This document shows, in pieces, positions 24,936-34,918 of a DNA stretch of 64,000 nucleotides (its first letter is position 1; the number at the start of each line of letters is the position of its first letter). The DNA lies in the NCBI GenBank assembly GCA_021845985.1, contig JAJZES010000039.1, forward strand, positions 46,079 to 110,078, in the 5' to 3' direction. The stretch comes from Pseudomonadota bacterium. Lineage in GTDB: Bacteria; Pseudomonadota; Alphaproteobacteria; Acetobacterales; Acetobacteraceae. The notes beneath the pieces are model-generated. The model did no database searches. It had not been told where the DNA came from and was given only the letters and a program-made list of their open reading frames with translations. The position numbers were made by a program, and so were the translations under genes.

Positions 24936-24939
24936 CCAA

Positions 24940-25050
24940 AGAGGGAGCGGCCGGCCGTAGCCGGCCGCTCATCTGGTGCGCCCAAGGGCGGTGAGGCCCA
25001 GGGGCACTTGTTAACGGAAGGCCCGCATTCCCCCATCGGCTATATGGAAC
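24940..25050 (-). ncRNA. Putative tracrRNA of the type II-C CRISPR-Cas locus (ends approximate)
   Basis: Minus strand reads TATAGCCGATGGGGGAATGCGGGCC (25044-25020), identical to repeat positions 3-27 on the + strand and so complementary to minus-strand crRNA repeats. It continues TTCCGTTAAC (lower stem, with 2x2 U.U loop), then a nested stem-loop (24976-25007), then GAGCGGCCGGC-UACG-GCCGGCCGCUC (24945-24970) followed by CCUCUUU. Confidence 0.85.
24945..24970 (-). terminator. Terminal hairpin of the tracrRNA: 11-bp stem with C(UACG)G tetraloop and short U-rich tail
   Basis: Perfect inverted repeat gagcggccggc-cgta-gccggccgctc; the 3' side on the minus strand is CCTCTTT. Confidence 0.65.
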
Positions 25051-25105
25051 GGTGACTTTCCAACCCGACGTTGCGCCGAAATCGCGCGTGGCGTCAAGTT
25101 GGCGG

Positions 25106-28100
25106 ATGACATACCGTCTCGCACTCGACATTGGTGCCAACTCCATCGGCTGGTGCCTGTTCACCCTCGACGCCTCCGAACCACCGGAGCCGATCGGCAT
25201 TCGCGACATCGGCGTCCGGGTGTTCCCGGACGGGCGGGAGGCGAAAACCAACGCCTCGCTCGCAGCGGCGCGGCGCGCGGCGCGGCAGATGCGGCGGCGG
25301 CGCGACCGCTATCTGCAGCGGCGGGCCGCCCTGCTCAACACGCTGACCCGCTGGGGTCTCATGCCCGCCGCCACGGCAGAGCGGGCGGCGGTGGCGGCGC
25401 TCGACCCCTATGTGCTGCGCGACGTGGCACTGACGCGGCGGCTGGAAGCGTTTGAACTTGGCCGGGCAATCTTTCATCTCAACCAGCGCCGCGGCTTTCG
25501 CAGCAATCGCACGATCGACCGCAGCAATCAGGACGAGAAGGGCAAGATCAAGCAGGGCGGCGAAAATCTGGCCATTCAGATCGCCCGCGGCAATTTTGCC
25601 ACGCTCGGCGCGTGGCTGGCGGAGCGGCACGCAAAACGGGCGGAGGTGCGGGCACGGCTGCGCGGCACCGGCATGCGGGCGGCGTATCCGTTCTATCCGA
25701 TGCGCCACATGATCGAGGCCGAGTTCGACACGATCTGGACGGCGCAGGCGGCATGGAACCCGGCCTTGTCGGCGCCGATGCGCGCAGAGATTCATCGCGT
25801 CCTGTTCTCCCAGCGCAACCTGCGCAAGCCGCTCGTCGGCAGATGCTGGCTGGAGCCGACGCAGGACCGGGCGCCGCGCGCGCTGCCGAGCACGCAGGCA
25901 TTCCGCATCGCCCAGGATCTCGCCAACCTCGCCATCCGCCGGCCCGGAGAGCCGGATCAGCGGCCAACTGACCAGCAACGGGCGCTGCTGTTCGATTTGC
26001 TCATGGCTGGCCACGATCAGTCGTTCGGCCAGATGCGCAAGCTGCTCGGGCTGAGCCGCAGAGAACCCTTCAATCTCGAATCGCGCGCCCGCGACGGCCT
26101 GAAGGGCAGCGCGACGGCGACGCGACTGGCCGGCAAAAAAGGGCCGTTGCGGGCGGTGTGGACGGATTTGCCGCTGCTGGAACAAGACGAGATCGTCCGC
26201 ATTCTGCTGGAAGCGGAGGGAGAGGAGGCGGTGGCGGCGGCGCTGGCGCGGTTCGCCATCCCGGCCGACGCCGCCGCGGCAGCGGCCGACATGACGCTGC
26301 CGGATGGGCATGGCTCACTCTCGACCAAGGCGATCACGGCGATCCTGCCGCATCTGCTGGCCGGCAACACCTATGATGCCGCCGTGCAACTGGCCGGCTA
26401 CGCGCATCACTCCGACGACCGCGACGGGGTGATCCGCCCCTGCCTGCCATATTACGGCGAGATTCTCGGCGAGCGGCTCGGGACCGGCAGCGGCAAGCCC
26501 GAAGACTCCGAGGAACGCCGCTTCGGCCGTGCGCCCAATCCGACCGTCCATGTCGCGCTCAACCAACTGCGCATCGTCGTCAACACGCTGATCGAGCGCT
26601 ACGGGCCACCGGCGCAGGTGGTGGTGGAGGTGCTGCGCGAACTGGCGCAATCGGCCCATCAGCGGGCGCTGGTGGAAAAGGAACAGGCGGAAAATGCCAA
26701 GCGCCGCGCTGGATGGGTCAAGCAGCTTGAGGAGCTGCGCGAGAGGCCGAACGGCCGCAACCTCGCCTTCATGCGCCTGTGGCACGAACAGGCCGAGGAC
26801 CCGAAGGATCGGGTCTGTCCCTATACTGGCCGGCTGATTTCGCTCGAACTGCTGTTTTCGGGCGAGGTCGAGGAAGACCACATCCTGCCTTATGCGGTGA
26901 CGCTGGACGACAGTTTCGCCAACCGCGTGCTGGTGACGCGGGAGGCCAATCGCCGCAAGGGCCGGCAGACGCCGCATAAGGCGTTCGGCGGTTCGCCCGA
27001 ATGGCCGGACATTCAGGCACGGATCAAGGCACTGCCGGGCAACAAGGCGTGGCGGTTCGCCCCCGGCGCGCTGGAAAAATGGCGCGGCGAGCATGGCGAT
27101 TTTCTCGCCCGGCATCTGACCGACAGCGCCTATCTGGCGCGGCTGGCGCGGCTGTATCTGCGCGCGGTGTGCGACCCCGATCAGGTCTGGGTGGTGCCGG
27201 GCCGGCTGACCGGCATGCTGCGCGGCGTGCTGGGGCTGAACAGCGCGACGCTGCTCGGCAAGGGCGGTGCGCGCAAGGAGCGCAACGACCACCGCCACCA
27301 CGCCATCGACGCCCTGACCATCGGGCTGATCGACCGCAGCCTGTTGCAGCGCGTGGCGACGGCAGCGCGGCGGGCGGAGGACAGCGGGCGGCGATTGATG
27401 GAGGATGTGGAGCCGCCCTGGCCTGGCTTCGTGGCGGAGGCAGCGGCGCGGGTGCGCGGGATCGTGGTGTCGTTCCGGCCGGATACCGCCCCGGCAGGGC
27501 AGTTGCACAACGCCACCGCCTATCGCCAGCTAATCGGGGCCGGCAAGGGCGAGCCGAACGTCGCCCATCGGGTGCCCATCCAGTCTCTGGCGGGCTGGTC
27601 GGCGGAGGACGTGACGACGGCGGTGCCCGACCCCGATCTGCGCGCGCGCATTCTTGCCGCCCTTGCCGCCGACGGAAAACCGGCGCAGGCCGCGGCCCTG
27701 GCGCAAGTGGCGCACGATCCCGACAGCGCCGTTCGTCATATCCAGGTGCGCGAACGCCTGGACGGAACCGCCGCCATCAAGGACCGCCGGACCGGCCGGC
27801 CATACAAGCTGGTGAAGCTGGACGCCAATCATCGGGTCGAAATCTGGCGGCTGCCGGGCGAGCCGGGCGCGCCCGCCAGGCCGGTGATGTGCGTCATCGC
27901 GTTGATGCAGGCGGCGATGGATGCGGAACTGGCGCGCCTCGGCCGCCCCGTGCCCGACCGCCGGCCGCATCCGGCCGCCCGGCTGCTGATGCGGCTGCAC
28001 AAGGGCGACGTGGTGGCGTTCGGCAACGGGGCCGGGCGGCGGCTGTTGCGCGTCATTAAGTATCGCAGCGGGCAGGTGACACTTGCCACTCTGCATGAAG

Positions 28101-28249
28101 CCGGAAATCTGAAGGCCCGGGATGCCGAAAAGGACGATCCGTTCAAGTATGTAAACGCCGGCGTGACGAGATTTCGCGAGGAGCGCGCCCGAAAGGTGTT
28201 CGTCGATCCCGCCGGCCGGGTCCGCGACCCCGGCCCGCTCAAATGGTGA
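25106..28249 (+). CDS. cas9: CRISPR-associated endonuclease Cas9, type II-C, about 1047 aa
   Basis: RuvC-I MTYRLALDIGANSIGW; Arg-rich bridge helix AAARRAARQMRRRRDRYLQRRAALL; RuvC-II QVVVEVLREL; HNH CPYTGRLISLELLFSGEVEEDHILPYAVTLDDSFANRVLVTREANRRKG; RuvC-III NDHRHHAIDALTIGL. The ORF track start at 25052 adds 18 upstream residues; MTYRLALDIG at 25106 is the family-typical start. Confidence 0.96.
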   Translation: MTYRLALDIGANSIGWCLFTLDASEPPEPIGIRDIGVRVFPDGREAKTNASLAAARRAARQMRRRRDRYLQRRAALLNTLTRWGLMPAATAERAAVAALDPYVLRDVALTRRLEAFELGRAIFHLNQRRGFRSNRTIDRSNQDEKGKIKQGGENLAIQIARGNFATLGAWLAERHAKRAEVRARLRGTGMRAAYPFYPMRHMIEAEFDTIWTAQAAWNPALSAPMRAEIHRVLFSQRNLRKPLVGRCWLEPTQDRAPRALPSTQAFRIAQDLANLAIRRPGEPDQRPTDQQRALLFDLLMAGHDQSFGQMRKLLGLSRREPFNLESRARDGLKGSATATRLAGKKGPLRAVWTDLPLLEQDEIVRILLEAEGEEAVAAALARFAIPADAAAAAADMTLPDGHGSLSTKAITAILPHLLAGNTYDAAVQLAGYAHHSDDRDGVIRPCLPYYGEILGERLGTGSGKPEDSEERRFGRAPNPTVHVALNQLRIVVNTLIERYGPPAQVVVEVLRELAQSAHQRALVEKEQAENAKRRAGWVKQLEELRERPNGRNLAFMRLWHEQAEDPKDRVCPYTGRLISLELLFSGEVEEDHILPYAVTLDDSFANRVLVTREANRRKGRQTPHKAFGGSPEWPDIQARIKALPGNKAWRFAPGALEKWRGEHGDFLARHLTDSAYLARLARLYLRAVCDPDQVWVVPGRLTGMLRGVLGLNSATLLGKGGARKERNDHRHHAIDALTIGLIDRSLLQRVATAARRAEDSGRRLMEDVEPPWPGFVAEAAARVRGIVVSFRPDTAPAGQLHNATAYRQLIGAGKGEPNVAHRVPIQSLAGWSAEDVTTAVPDPDLRARILAALAADGKPAQAAALAQVAHDPDSAVRHIQVRERLDGTAAIKDRRTGRPYKLVKLDANHRVEIWRLPGEPGAPARPVMCVIALMQAAMDAELARLGRPVPDRRPHPAARLLMRLHKGDVVAFGNGAGRRLLRVIKYRSGQVTLATLHEAGNLKARDAEKDDPFKYVNAGVTRFREERARKVFVDPAGRVRDPGPLKW

Positions 28250-28253
28250 CGCC

Positions 28254-29261
28254 ATGTCCAGTCCGCTCGGCCGCATCGTCGAGATCGTGGAAACCGGCCG
28301 GCATCTGTCGAAGGAGCGCGGCTTCCTGGTGGTGAGCGCGGGCGCGCGGGAAGTTGGCCGCGTGCCATTGGATGATCTGGCGGCGGTGCTGGCGACGGCG
28401 CGCGGCACCTCGGTGTCCGTGGCGTTGCTCACGGCGCTGGCCGAGCGCGGATTGCCGTTCGTGGTGCCGGGCACGAACTTCGCGCCGGCGGCGCTGCTGT
28501 GGCCGCTGGCCGGGCACCACGCCGCCAGCCGGCGCATGGCAATGCAGATCGAGCGCACGCGGCCGATGGAAAAGCGGCTCTGGGCGCTGGTGGTGGCGGC
28601 GAAAATCCGCCGCCAGGGCTGGGCGCTGCAATGCGCCGGCCTGCCCGCCGGCGCGTTCGTTCGTCTCGCTCGTGCGGTGAAGGCGGGCGACCCGGACAAT
28701 CTGGAGGCGCAGGCGGCGCGGCGATATTGGACCCTGCTGTTCGGCGCCGCGTTCCGGCGCGATGCCGACGCGGCCGGCGCCAATGCGCTGCTCAATTACG
28801 GCTACGCGGTGTTGCGCGCGGCGGTGGCGCGGGCGATCTGCGCCGCCGGGCTGCATCCGGCACTCGGCATTTTCCATCGCCATCCCGAAAACCCGACGCC
28901 GCTGGCCGACGATCTGATGGAGCCGTTCCGCCCGATCGTCGATGCGGCGGTGCGGCGCTTGCTCGATGCAGGCGTCACCGAGGTCACGGTGGCGGCGAAG
29001 CGACAGCTTGCCGGGCTGCTGTGGCAGGATGAAGTGACCGCGGCGGGGCACAGCCCGCTGATGACGGCGCTGTTGCGCTGCGCCCAAAGCCTCGCCGACA
29101 GCTACCTGACCGGCGAGCCGGATTTGCAGTTTCCGCTGCTGCGATTGAGGGAGACCGCAGATGGCCGAACGCCTGAGCGGCTATCGGATCATGTGGCAAG
29201 TGCTGATGTTCGATCTTCCGGTGATGACGAAGCCGCAGCGCAAGGCGGCGACGGGGTTTAG
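28254..29261 (+). CDS. cas1: CRISPR-associated endonuclease Cas1 (type II)
   Basis: DPDNLEAQAARRYW (catalytic Glu), HPALGIFHRHPENPTPLADDLMEPFRPIVDAAV (His, Asp); directly downstream of cas9. Confidence 0.94.
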   Translation: MSSPLGRIVEIVETGRHLSKERGFLVVSAGAREVGRVPLDDLAAVLATARGTSVSVALLTALAERGLPFVVPGTNFAPAALLWPLAGHHAASRRMAMQIERTRPMEKRLWALVVAAKIRRQGWALQCAGLPAGAFVRLARAVKAGDPDNLEAQAARRYWTLLFGAAFRRDADAAGANALLNYGYAVLRAAVARAICAAGLHPALGIFHRHPENPTPLADDLMEPFRPIVDAAVRRLLDAGVTEVTVAAKRQLAGLLWQDEVTAAGHSPLMTALLRCAQSLADSYLTGEPDLQFPLLRLRETADGRTPERLSDHVASADVRSSGDDEAAAQGGDGV

Positions 29262-29499
29262 GCAATGGCTGCTGGACGAGGGCTGGGAGATGAGCCAGTT
29301 CAGCGTCTATCTGCGCTGGTGCGTCGGCAAGGAACAGGCGGACGTGCGCACGCGCGCGGTGGCCCGCAAAGTCCCGGCGGAGGGCAAGGTGCATGTGCTG
29401 AACGTGACCGACCGGCAGTTCGCGGCGATGGCGGTTTTCCGCGGCAAGACGCGCGAGCGGCCGGGCCGGGGGCAGCCGGACCAGTTGACGCTGTTCTGA
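29161..29499 (+). CDS. cas2: CRISPR-associated endoribonuclease Cas2
   Basis: YRIMWQVLMFDLPVMTKPQRKAATGFRQWLLDEGWEMSQFSVYLRWCVGKEQ; overlaps cas1 by 101 nt in another frame. Confidence 0.93.
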   Translation: MAERLSGYRIMWQVLMFDLPVMTKPQRKAATGFRQWLLDEGWEMSQFSVYLRWCVGKEQADVRTRAVARKVPAEGKVHVLNVTDRQFAAMAVFRGKTRERPGRGQPDQLTLF

Positions 29500-29519
29500 T
29501 GCAGCCGCTTTCGGCAGCC

Positions 29520-29567
29520 CCGATCGGCGCTAATCTGTCACGTATTCAACAGATTAGCGCCGATCGG
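29520..29567. repeat. Perfect 19-bp inverted repeat with 10-nt loop, between cas2 and the first CRISPR repeat
   Basis: CCGATCGGCGCTAATCTGT (29520-29538), CACGTATTCA, ACAGATTAGCGCCGATCGG (29549-29567); last base is base 1 of the first CRISPR repeat. Confidence 0.9.
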
Positions 29568-30787
29568 TTATAGCCGATGGGGGAATGCGGGCCAACCGCA
29601 ACTATTCCGGCATTCAAGGCTCGCTTGCCGTGGTTATAGCCGATGGGGGAATGCGGGCCAACCGCAACGGATGCGCTGTTCCGCCGGATCGGCCGGCGGT
29701 TATAGCCGATGGGGGAATGCGGGCCAACCGCAACCTTGCCGGGCTTCGGCGCGACATGTTCACGGTTATAGCCGATGGGGGAATGCGGGCCAACCGCAAC
29801 TCGCGCGCCTGTTCGCGTGGTGCGCGTTGCGTTATAGCCGATGGGGGAATGCGGGCCAACCGCAACTTTTCGGCGTTCAACCAGCTCAGCAACATCGTTA
29901 TAGCCGATGGGGGAATGCGGGCCAACCGCAACTCACCATCCTGTCATATTGGCGACGCGAAAGTTATAGCCGATGGGGGAATGCGGGCCAACCGCAACTC
30001 CCTGCGGAAGCAGGCGAAGGCGTCTATCGTTATAGCCGATGGGGGAATGCGGGCCAACCGCAACGTACCAGTCACTCTGACACCCGCCAAGGGTGTTATA
30101 GCCGATGGGGGAATGCGGGCCAACCGCAACCTTGCGCAGCAAGACTCGCGTGGTGCGTGCGTTATAGCCGATGGGGGAATGCGGGCCAACCGCAACGGCT
30201 TGACCACCTGCACGATCGACAGTGTGGTTATAGCCGATGGGGGAATGCGGGCCAACCGCAACTAGCCCGCGACGCTGGCGCCGGTGACCGGGGTTATAGC
30301 CGATGGGGGAATGCGGGCCAACCGCAACTCTGCGAGCGACGGGCAGCCAGGGAAAGACGTTATAGCCGATGGGGGAATGCGGGCCAACCGCAACCGGGTC
30401 ACGCACGGCGACGCCGCCGGCGGGGTTATAGCCGATGGGGGAATGCGGGCCAACCGCAACAGCGGCGTGCGTGATGCGCTCATAGGCCGAGTTATAGCCG
30501 ATGGGGGAATGCGGGCCAACCGCAACTACCTAATCGTTCACGTTCCCCCGCGCAATGTTATAGCCGATGGGGGAATGCGGGCCAACCGCAACACCGGCCC
30601 CGTGCTCATGGCCAGCGCGGCGTTATAGCCGATGGGGGAATGCGGGCCAACCGCAACACGTGCCAGCCGAGGATGTGTCGCCGGTGGTTATAGCCGATGG
30701 GGGAATGCGGGCCAACCGCAACACTACGCGCGGCTGGCGCCCGGCACCTACGTTATAGCCGATGGGGGAATGCGGGCCAACCGCAAG
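29567..30787 (-). CRISPR. Type II-C CRISPR array: 19 x 36-bp repeats, 18 spacers (15 of 30 bp, 3 of 29 bp); crRNA strand inferred minus, repeat GTTGCGGTTGGCCCGCATTCCCCCATCGGCTATAAC
   Basis: + strand repeat GTTATAGCCGATGGGGGAATGCGGGCCAACCGCAAC starts at 29567, then every 66 bp to 30557, then 30622, 30687, 30752; only the last copy differs (terminal C to G). Orientation from tracrRNA anti-repeat strand. Confidence 0.97.
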
Positions 30788-30839
30788 CTGAGTACACTGA
30801 GTACAGGGGACTCGCCGCGACTCGAAACGGCCGGCCGGT
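30788..30839 (-). promoter_or_regulatory. Putative CRISPR leader (52 bp), bounded by the ABC exporter stop codon
   Basis: Abuts the distal repeat; contains tandem CTGAGTACA x2 (30788-30805) and GACTCG-CCGC-GACTCG (30809-30824). Confidence 0.5.
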
Positions 30840-33579: not shown

Positions 33580-33839
33580 TGCACCGCCGCATGAACGGGA
33601 TCGAGATGCCGCCCGCCCTGACCCGCCGCGCCCTGCTCGGCAGCGCCCTCACCACGCCCATGCTGGCCGCCCCCATGCTGGCCGCACCCGCCATCGCCGC
33701 CGACGCGCCAGTGCGCATCGGCGTGCTGGTGGACGAAAGCGGCCCCTATCACGACATCGGCGGCCCCGGCTCGGCCGAGGCGGCGCGCATGGCGGCGGAG
33801 GATTTCGGCGGCTCGGTGCTCGGCCGGCCAATCGAAATC
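33576..33839 (+). pseudogene. 5' fragment of an ABC transporter substrate-binding protein gene, truncated by an IS element
   Basis: Signal peptide then PVRIGVLVDESGPYHDIGGPGSAEAARMAAEDFGGSVLGRPIEI, at which point homology stops at the IS end; no C-terminal remainder right of the IS. Confidence 0.8.
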
Positions 33840-34918
33840 GCTCTTATGTCGTTCTCTGTTGATAGGGGCCTAACCCTGCGGCTCCCATGATCCAGGTGGT
33901 GCGGTCTGATGTGGCACCGAGGGCTTCGATGGTTCTGCGCCAACTCAGGTAGCTCGGCAGGTTCTTGGTGGCGACGCCGTGAAAGCGCCGCATCCATTCC
34001 TTGAGTCGGCCGTGGCAGGCATTGACGTTGTTGATGTGAAGCTCCGGCGCCTGGGGCTTTGGCAGGCCAGGAGCGGCCAACACATGGCACCTGATCCCGG
34101 CGCGCCGTGCAAGCGCGGTGATCGCCGTCCCTCCGTCGCAGCACAACTCTGCCGGCCGGCTCATGACATTGTGCAGAGCCACCGTGATGCTGGCAGCGTC
34201 GAGGCGTGCCAGCACGGCATCGGTGGTGGCGCCGCTGCGGTCGCGCGCGACGATGACCGGGATCTGTTCTGCCGAGAGCCCGCGCTTGAGCGCCTTGCCG
34301 CCGCGCTTGCGCGCGGGCCTCGGCAGGGCGCGGCGTTTGCCCTTGAAGGATTCCAGGATGAACGTCTCGTCGGCCTCGACGAGGCCGGTCAGGCGCGGCG
34401 GTTTGTCGAGCGTGAGTGCCGACAGGAACCGATGCCGCCAGCGGAACGCGGTGGTATAGGCCACTTTGCAGCGCCCTGCGGCTTGCGCCACCGTCGCGCC
34501 GACGATCAACGCTTGTGCCTGATCCGGCCAGCGATCCTGGTGGTGCAGCGGTAGCGCGGCTTGCCGCTGGCGTTGCCCCAGGGATGAATGTCATCTCTGC
34601 CGCAATGCGGACAGCCGAAGCTCGCAATGCGACTGCGCCCGACCTGCGACAGCAGGCCCCGGTCAACGTCGGACGCAACCGTCGTGACGCCCGACGGCGC
34701 AGCCACGGCTTCACCCGGCACCGCGGGCGCAGCGGCCGAAGCCTCCATCGGATCAGCCGCCCCGGCCAACCCCAGTTCCCGCATTGCCCGGCGCCGCTGT
34801 GACGCACTCAGCCGCCCAATACCGGCAAGCCAATCCGCAAACGCCCCCGTGTCCATGTCAGGCTTCCCCCGCCGAACGCCCAACCCTCCCATCGATCAAC
34901 AGAGATTGCTATAAAAGC
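33840..34918 (-). mobile_element. IS1595-family-like insertion sequence, degenerate
   Basis: Imperfect terminal inverted repeats GCTCTTATGTCGTTCTCTGTTGAT (33840-33863) and, on the opposite strand, GCTTTTATAGCAATCTCTGTTGAT (34918-34895); transposase similarity inside. Confidence 0.75.
33844..34892 (-). pseudogene. IS1595/ISXO2-like transposase, split into two frames
   Basis: Zinc ribbon CPHCGRDDIHPWGNASGKPRYRCTT in ORF 34506-34892; DDE-type GLVEADETFILESFKGKRR… and HINNVNACHGRLKEWMRRFHGVATKNLPSYLSWRR in ORF 33844-34509; the in-frame continuation HHQDRWPDQAQALIVGA is out of phase. Confidence 0.8.

What the first reader, a model, noticed from the sequence alone, without database searches (positions are those of the whole stretch)
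24940..30839. Complete compact type II-C CRISPR-Cas9 locus with a 1047-aa Cas9
All parts can be read: tracrRNA, cas9, cas1, cas2, 19-repeat array and a short leader. The Cas9 sequence keeps the RuvC-I Asp region, RuvC-II Glu (VVVEVLREL), HNH EEDHILPYAV…N, and RuvC-III HHAIDA, so it looks catalytically intact. 18 of 19 repeats are identical, which suggests an actively maintained array. The repeat form GTTGCGGTTGGCC… resembles the Parvibaculum-type II-C repeat (GCTGCGGATTGCGG…), while the rest is different. This is a candidate small, high-GC genome editor with unknown PAM.
Basis: partly seen in the sequence, partly recalled or inferred. Interest (0 to 1): 0.8.

Follow-up and report, generated by a model that had tools for sequence, protein, structure and literature searches.

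The report
Ordinary Cas9 locus, unusual leader hairpin
This is a complete and probably working but ordinary bacterial CRISPR-Cas9 immune system with a Cas9 not seen among solved ones, and its newest-memory end carries an RNA hairpin that turns out to be conserved across dozens of related systems and may mark where transcription of the memory bank stops and new memories are inserted.

Summary
The window holds a complete type II-C CRISPR-Cas9 locus: tracrRNA, cas9 (1047 aa), cas1, cas2 and 19 repeats with 18 spacers. Cas9 is full-length, with RuvC and HNH catalytic residues invariant across 46 relatives. It folds like Nme1Cas9/HpaCas9 (Z about 28, about 25% identity). Congeners carry 67%-identical Cas9s with matching arrays, so it is a new member of a known kind. 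No spacer target was found, so the PAM is unknown and recent activity unproven. tracrRNA and crRNAs read on the minus strand, toward cas2. Mutated repeats lie only at the cas2-distal end (20 of 43 complete arrays, against 0 of 43), so new spacers enter beside cas2, as reported for II-C. The unexpected part is the 67-bp cas2-array leader: it carries a hairpin abutting the newest repeat. Across II-C relatives this hairpin sits at a fixed position, covaries (13 of 16 pairs), is more stable as minus-strand RNA (49 of 58 loci), and is absent from the other array end. I infer that it ends or insulates array transcription; many relatives have a U-tract after it, this one does not. That function is untested.

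The parts
24936..25047 (-). tracrRNA, approximate ends; 5' end at the anti-repeat, 3' end at the terminator-like hairpin
   Evidence: Repeat:anti-repeat match, alignment with six relatives, fold z -4.7 for the tail, co-fold with the crRNA repeat -113 kcal/mol
25020..25044 (-). anti-repeat, 25-bp duplex with the crRNA repeat; UU/UU internal loop and 7-bp lower stem follow
24976..25007 (-). tracrRNA first hairpin, with a 16-nt insertion absent from six relatives
   Evidence: alignment A2, folds
24945..24970 (-). tracrRNA terminator-like hairpin with CCTCTTT tail
25106..28249 (+). cas9, 1047 aa, type II-C
   Evidence: TIGR01865, Pfam HNH_4/RuvC_III/Cas9_a, invariant catalytic residues in 46 sequences, AF2 model pLDDT 85 matching Nme1/Hpa Cas9
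28254..29261 (+). cas1, 335 aa, type II
   Evidence: TIGR03639 214 bits
29161..29499 (+). cas2, 112 aa; overlaps the 3' end of cas1 by 101 bp
   Evidence: TIGR01573; Cas2_II; overlap shared by the clade
29500..29566 (-). leader (acquisition end), read here in crRNA sense; 67 bp between cas2 and the newest repeat
   Evidence: cas2-array distance conserved in 49 of 58 loci; mutated repeats only at the other end
29520..29567 (-). leader hairpin, 20-bp stem abutting the newest repeat; no U-tract after it
   Evidence: fold z -8.3; covariation in relatives; covariance-model match 34.6 bits
29567..30787 (-). CRISPR array, 19 repeats and 18 spacers; crRNA sense is the minus strand (GTTGCGGTTGGCCCGCATTCCCCCATCGGCTATAAC)
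29567..29602 (-). newest, leader-adjacent repeat; like each repeat it contains a sigma-70-like promoter, TTGGCC-N17-TATAAC, pointing toward cas2
   Evidence: sequence only
30752..30787 (-). oldest repeat, one base changed

Best explanation
This is a complete type II-C CRISPR-Cas9 immunity locus of an uncultured alphaproteobacterium, very probably Acetobacteraceae. Each repeat probably carries its own promoter, so crRNAs are transcribed on the minus strand from oldest to newest, toward cas2, with starts a few nucleotides into each spacer. The minus-strand tracrRNA pairs with the repeat over 25 bp plus a lower stem, RNase III trims the duplex, and Cas9 uses the dual guide to cut DNA. Cas1-Cas2 insert new spacers beside cas2, between the newest repeat and a 48-nt hairpin. 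The hairpin is most probably an RNA element that ends or insulates array transcription and keeps the newest repeat's promoter from firing antisense into cas2-cas1-cas9. Shown here by sequence: genes, catalytic residues, guide-RNA pairing, array polarity, and the hairpin with its covariation and strand bias. Inferred: transcription starts, cleavage, acquisition and the hairpin's function. The confidence given is for the locus, its guide RNA and its polarity; for the hairpin's transcriptional role alone I would say about 0.6.
For: Cas9, Cas1 and Cas2 family hits. Catalytic residues invariant in 46 sequences and a full-length fold match to Nme1/Hpa Cas9. Repeat-tracrRNA architecture conserved in seven loci, with matched changes in repeat and anti-repeat. 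Same gene order in about 60 loci. Distal repeat mutated in 20 of 43 complete arrays, cas2-proximal repeat in 0 of 43, internal 12 of 816. TTGGCC-N17-TATAAC in the repeat. Hairpin: leader-side z median -5.1 against -0.3 at the distal side and -0.1 in coding controls; 13 of 16 pairs with compensatory changes, 116 double-change cells against 42 in shuffles, and 63 against 26 after redundancy removal to 18 sequences; minus strand more stable in 49 of 58 loci, GU pairs 112 against 35; model matches abut II-C repeats. Many relatives have a U-tract after it on the minus strand, for example Pasteurella multocida and Limnohabitans. Literature: II-C repeat promoters (PMC3656092), 3'-end acquisition (PMC12080349, PMC12638026), insertion beside cas2 in Riemerella (PMC6008519).
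Against: No protospacer was found, so neither PAM nor recent activity is shown. The hairpin in this window lacks a U-tract, so it is not a canonical intrinsic terminator here. No transcription data exist for this organism. The window's -10-like box TATAAC lacks the usual final T, and the simple promoter scan found no site.
Confidence: 0.85

Rival explanations
1. The leader hairpin is a DNA element: the dyad is read by Cas1-Cas2 or a host protein (or extruded as a cruciform) to place new spacers.
For: Fixed, almost ungapped position from the repeat edge; GATC next to the repeat in many members; it is exactly at the acquisition site, and in L015/L080, where cas2 was not found and cas1 is a fragment, the hairpin is gone too.
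Against: GU pairs favour minus-strand RNA (112 against 35; minus strand more stable in 49 of 58 loci; 16 of 18 after redundancy removal), which a DNA dyad would not produce.
Confidence: 0.25
2. The hairpin is simply the cas2 mRNA terminator, placed there by chance.
For: It lies just downstream of cas2 in most loci.
Against: In L091, L093 and L094 cas1-cas2 run the other way, the end of cas2 is about 1 kb from the array, yet the hairpin still abuts the array. Strand bias favours the minus strand. T-runs follow it on the minus strand in 14 loci and on the plus strand in 3.
Confidence: 0.12
3. The locus is a degraded or inactive relic, with intact-looking genes but no current immunity.
For: No spacer targets found anywhere searched.
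Against: Open reading frames full-length, catalytic residues intact, matched repeat and anti-repeat, 18 identical repeats, congeners with different spacers. Databases are probably poor in phages of this host.
Confidence: 0.07

Closest known systems
Type II-C CRISPR-Cas9 of Neisseria/Haemophilus type (Nme1Cas9, HpaCas9)
   Same: Cas9 fold over the full length including the C-terminal PAM-interacting part (Z about 28, rmsd 5-6 A), catalytic residues
   Different: Only about 25% identity; high GC; PAM unknown
Alphaproteobacterial II-C loci (Acetobacteraceae/Rhodospirillales MAGs, Azospirillum thermophilum megaplasmid, Parvibaculum, Rhodobacterales)
   Same: Gene order, minus-strand tracrRNA upstream of cas9, repeat family, leader spacing, leader hairpin
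   Different: Cas9 identity 60-69% in the near clade, 43% for Azospirillum, about 40% for the rest; the window's tracrRNA has a private 16-nt insertion
Leader palindrome of Riemerella anatipestifer II-C CRISPR1 (PMC5006608)
   Same: A palindrome AAACCCATTG-N5-CAATGGGTTT in the cas2-array interval, with the same TTG...CAA around the loop
   Different: Described in one species as a palindrome; not tested there for covariation, strand, or conservation beyond the species
Hairpins and terminators upstream of II-C arrays (Feussner 2025, PMC12080349)
   Same: RNA hairpins flanking II-C arrays, thought to limit useless crRNA production
   Different: That study examined the upstream, oldest-repeat side; the element here is on the downstream, newest-repeat side

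Membership tests
Type II-C CRISPR-Cas | Cas9 with RuvC and HNH nuclease domains and catalytic residues | tested here: met
   TIGR01865 507 bits; D8, E508, H592, N615, H732, D735 invariant in 46 sequences
Type II-C CRISPR-Cas | cas1 and cas2 of type II in the operon | tested here: met
   TIGR03639 and TIGR01573; Cas1_II and Cas2_II
Type II-C CRISPR-Cas | No csn2 (II-A) or cas4 (II-B) in the locus | tested here: met
   Only a hemF-like gene and an ABC transporter flank cas9-cas1-cas2-array; no room for a further gene in the operon. The rest of the genome was not searched for these genes
Type II-C CRISPR-Cas | tracrRNA with an anti-repeat matching the repeat | tested here: met
   25-nt match, conserved structure in 7 loci
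Type II-C CRISPR-Cas | 36-nt repeats with about 30-nt spacers | tested here: met
   19 repeats, spacers 29-30 nt
Type II-C CRISPR-Cas | Spacer acquisition at the 3' end of the array, away from the first transcribed repeat | tested here: met
   Indirect: mutated repeats only at the cas2-distal end, 20 of 43 against 0 of 43
Type II-C CRISPR-Cas | Promoter inside each repeat | tested here: inconclusive
   TTGGCC-N17-TATAAC present, but the generic scan requiring T at the last -10 position found none; no transcript data
Type II-C CRISPR-Cas | RNA-guided DNA cleavage with a defined PAM | not testable with these tools
   No protospacer found
Already characterised Cas9 (over 90% identity) | High identity to a characterised protein | tested here: inconclusive
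   Nearest solved structures about 25% identical, so not met among those; Cas9s characterised without a solved structure could not be checked
Intrinsic (Rho-independent) terminator, for the leader hairpin | GC-rich hairpin followed by a U-tract | tested here: not met
   Hairpin yes, but in the window it is followed by GGGGCTGCC; many relatives do have the tract
Known Rfam RNA family, for the leader hairpin | Match to an Rfam covariance model | tested here: not met
   No match at the leader up to E = 1

The most novel reading that the evidence does not exclude
Type II-C leaders carry a conserved, covarying RNA hairpin that exactly abuts the newest repeat, is read on the crRNA strand and stays in place as the array grows. 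It is an undescribed cis-element that ends or insulates array transcription at the acquisition site and marks the acquisition end of II-C arrays, whose orientation existing tools dispute.
Probability: 0.55. Interest if true: 0.6.

Novelty: new member of a known kind. Interest (0 to 1): 0.42.

Why it matters
The Cas9 itself adds one more divergent, high-GC II-C enzyme with a predictable guide RNA and unknown PAM. The leader hairpin matters more. A 2025 study reports that orientation tools disagree on type II-C arrays and suggests subgroups with different acquisition ends (PMC12638026). A hairpin that sits only at the acquisition end, with a covariance model that finds it from sequence alone, gives a direct way to orient II-C arrays and to ask how a system with a promoter in every repeat stops transcription at the place where it also inserts new spacers.

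Tried and rejected
Spacer targets. The whole native array was searched against phages (best hits E about 1, chance) and plasmids (hits were another CRISPR array and noise), and congener arrays against phages (none). Among 299 family genomes the best spacer matches had 3-5 mismatches with no common flank, as expected by chance in GC-rich genomes. Exact seeds of six spacers in IMG/VR gave no full-length match, best 7 mismatches. Hence no PAM is proposed. The single-sequence genome-contig scan found nothing and was repeated with an alignment. The idea that the palindrome is just a cas2 terminator was rejected on strand bias and on loci with cas1-cas2 reversed. Caveat on selection: the 36 leaders of alignment A4 were picked by me from 54 as those with a similar pattern, so covariation was also checked on a non-redundant 18 of them, and the fold statistic was run on all 63 loci. 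Eleven of the 63 loci show no leader hairpin (z -2 or above), among them L015, L017, L018, L028, L040, L063, L069, L086 and L092. The plasmid-borne set gave only weak model scores, although hairpins are visible by folding in three of them. In the class-wide model search, half of the 16 genomes with a match were not at CRISPR loci, so the model is not specific at weak scores. An uncorrected count of GU against AC cells in the alignment favoured the minus strand only weakly once column composition was allowed for; the clearer strand signal is the per-sequence folding test, and the loci are related, so its p-value is not exact.
Full report
WHAT IS THERE. The window carries a complete CRISPR-Cas9 locus between a hemF-like gene and a convergent ABC-transporter gene. 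In order: a tracrRNA on the minus strand (about 25047-24936), cas9 25106-28249, cas1 28254-29261, cas2 29161-29499, a 67-bp leader, and an array 29567-30787 of 19 repeats and 18 spacers. Cas9, Cas1 and Cas2 match their curated families far above cut-off.

CAS9. The protein is 1047 aa. Among 46 full-length or near-full-length relatives D8, E508, H592, N615, H732 and D735 are invariant; from established Cas9 knowledge these are the RuvC and HNH catalytic positions. An AlphaFold2 model (mean pLDDT 85, pTM 0.67) aligns over its full length to HpaCas9 and Nme1Cas9 at Z about 28 with 22-26% identity, and next to BlCas9, GeoCas9/ThermoCas9 and CjCas9. Two congeners (G001, G002) carry Cas9s 67% identical, and named MAGs carry 60-69% identical ones. 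An Azospirillum thermophilum megaplasmid has a 43%-identical Cas9 already annotated as type II Cas9. So the enzyme is new in sequence and ordinary in kind. Its size is normal for II-C.

GUIDE RNA. The repeat in crRNA sense is GTTGCGGTTGGCCCGCATTCCCCCATCGGCTATAAC. It pairs with the tracrRNA through a 7-bp lower stem, a UU/UU internal loop and a 25-bp upper duplex. Repeats and anti-repeats change together in the clade, for example GCGGGC to GGGGGC in L020 and L021, and a G-to-A change in the tracrRNA with its partner in the repeat in L023. After the anti-repeat come one hairpin and a GC-rich terminator-like hairpin. The first hairpin has a 16-nt insertion in the window that none of six relatives has.

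POLARITY. tracrRNA pairing fixes the crRNA sense as minus, so transcription runs toward cas2. Each repeat contains TTGGCC-N17-TATAAC, in line with the repeat-borne promoters shown in Campylobacter (PMC3656092). In 43 complete arrays of the window and its relatives the cas2-distal repeat is mutated in 20, the cas2-proximal in none, internal repeats in 12 of 816. The oldest end is therefore distal and new spacers enter beside cas2. This agrees with published statements on II-C (PMC12080349, PMC12638026) and with insertion shown beside cas2 in Riemerella (PMC6008519). It is a known oddity, not a new one.

THE LEADER HAIRPIN. In 49 of 58 loci cas2 and the array are 69-81 bp apart (measured from the end of the cas2 match). 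In the window this interval holds a 20-bp-stem hairpin whose edge is the repeat itself (z -8.3). Folding the 60 nt next to the array gives a median z of -5.1 on the leader side (52 of 63 loci below -2), against -0.3 on the distal side (2 of 44) and -0.1 in coding controls (6 of 63). An almost gap-free alignment of 36 leaders supports a 16-pair stem: 13 pairs have compensatory changes, 116 double-change cells against 42 in shuffles, and sliding the partner by one column roughly halves the signal or worse. With only 18 sequences under 60% identity the excess remains (63 against 26, maximum 41 in 1000 shuffles). The stem is more stable as minus-strand than plus-strand RNA in 49 of 58 loci, with 112 against 35 GU pairs. 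This points to an RNA made in crRNA sense. A covariance model finds the element in loci not used to build it; those inspected abut a II-C repeat, including one-repeat arrays. In 385 genomes of the class, searched without any protein, 16 had a match and 8 of these lie at cas2 or at arrays, among them four of the best six. Pasteurella multocida and Limnohabitans plasmid-borne loci have the same kind of hairpin followed by T-runs on the minus strand. Rfam has no match.

HOW IT PROBABLY WORKS. If every repeat is a promoter facing cas2, the newest repeat would fire antisense into cas2-cas1-cas9, and array transcripts need an end. A hairpin placed exactly there would end or insulate these transcripts, and because spacers are inserted between it and the newest repeat it stays at the end as the array grows. 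In members with a U-tract this looks like a normal intrinsic terminator. In this window and many alphaproteobacteria the tract is missing, so another ending mechanism or a stabilising role must be assumed. That step is inference. A DNA role in acquisition is the main rival.

LITERATURE. Within the open-access papers searched I found one species-level note of a palindrome in a II-C leader (PMC5006608) and a study of hairpins on the opposite, upstream side (PMC12080349). A 2025 study describes II-C array orientation as unresolved by current tools (PMC12638026). I found no description of the conserved element, but subscription journals were not covered.

VERDICT. New member of a known kind, with a well-supported, apparently undescribed conserved leader hairpin. 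Interest 0.42.

Noticed in passing
window 29161-29261: cas1 and cas2 overlap by 101 bp in different frames, giving Cas1 a tail of about 34 residues. The overlap is kept in the near clade (83-107 bp in seven loci) and essentially absent in the eleven more distant II-C loci checked.
   Followed up: partly
window 24976-25007: The tracrRNA hairpin after the anti-repeat has a 16-nt insertion, forming an extra 4-bp stem and loop, not present in six relatives.
   Followed up: partly
L021 6001-9141: This 67%-identical relative (lake MAG) has an in-frame stop at codon 234 of cas9 while its 11 repeats are intact; broken gene or sequencing error.
   Followed up: no
L015 and L080, around 10676-11953 of L015: An Acetobacteraceae MAG with cas9 split over two frames, a cas1 fragment, no cas2 found, and no leader hairpin next to its 16-repeat array.
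   Followed up: no
window 33750-34800: A transposase-like ORF on the minus strand (33844-34509) lies directly after a short ORF that begins like an ABC-transporter substrate-binding protein and is cut off, which looks like an insertion-sequence disruption.
   Followed up: no
L194 1501-1560 (G652:C3): A strong match to the leader-hairpin model (39 bits) that abuts a tRNA-like sequence, not a CRISPR array; probably an unrelated terminator-like palindrome.
   Followed up: no
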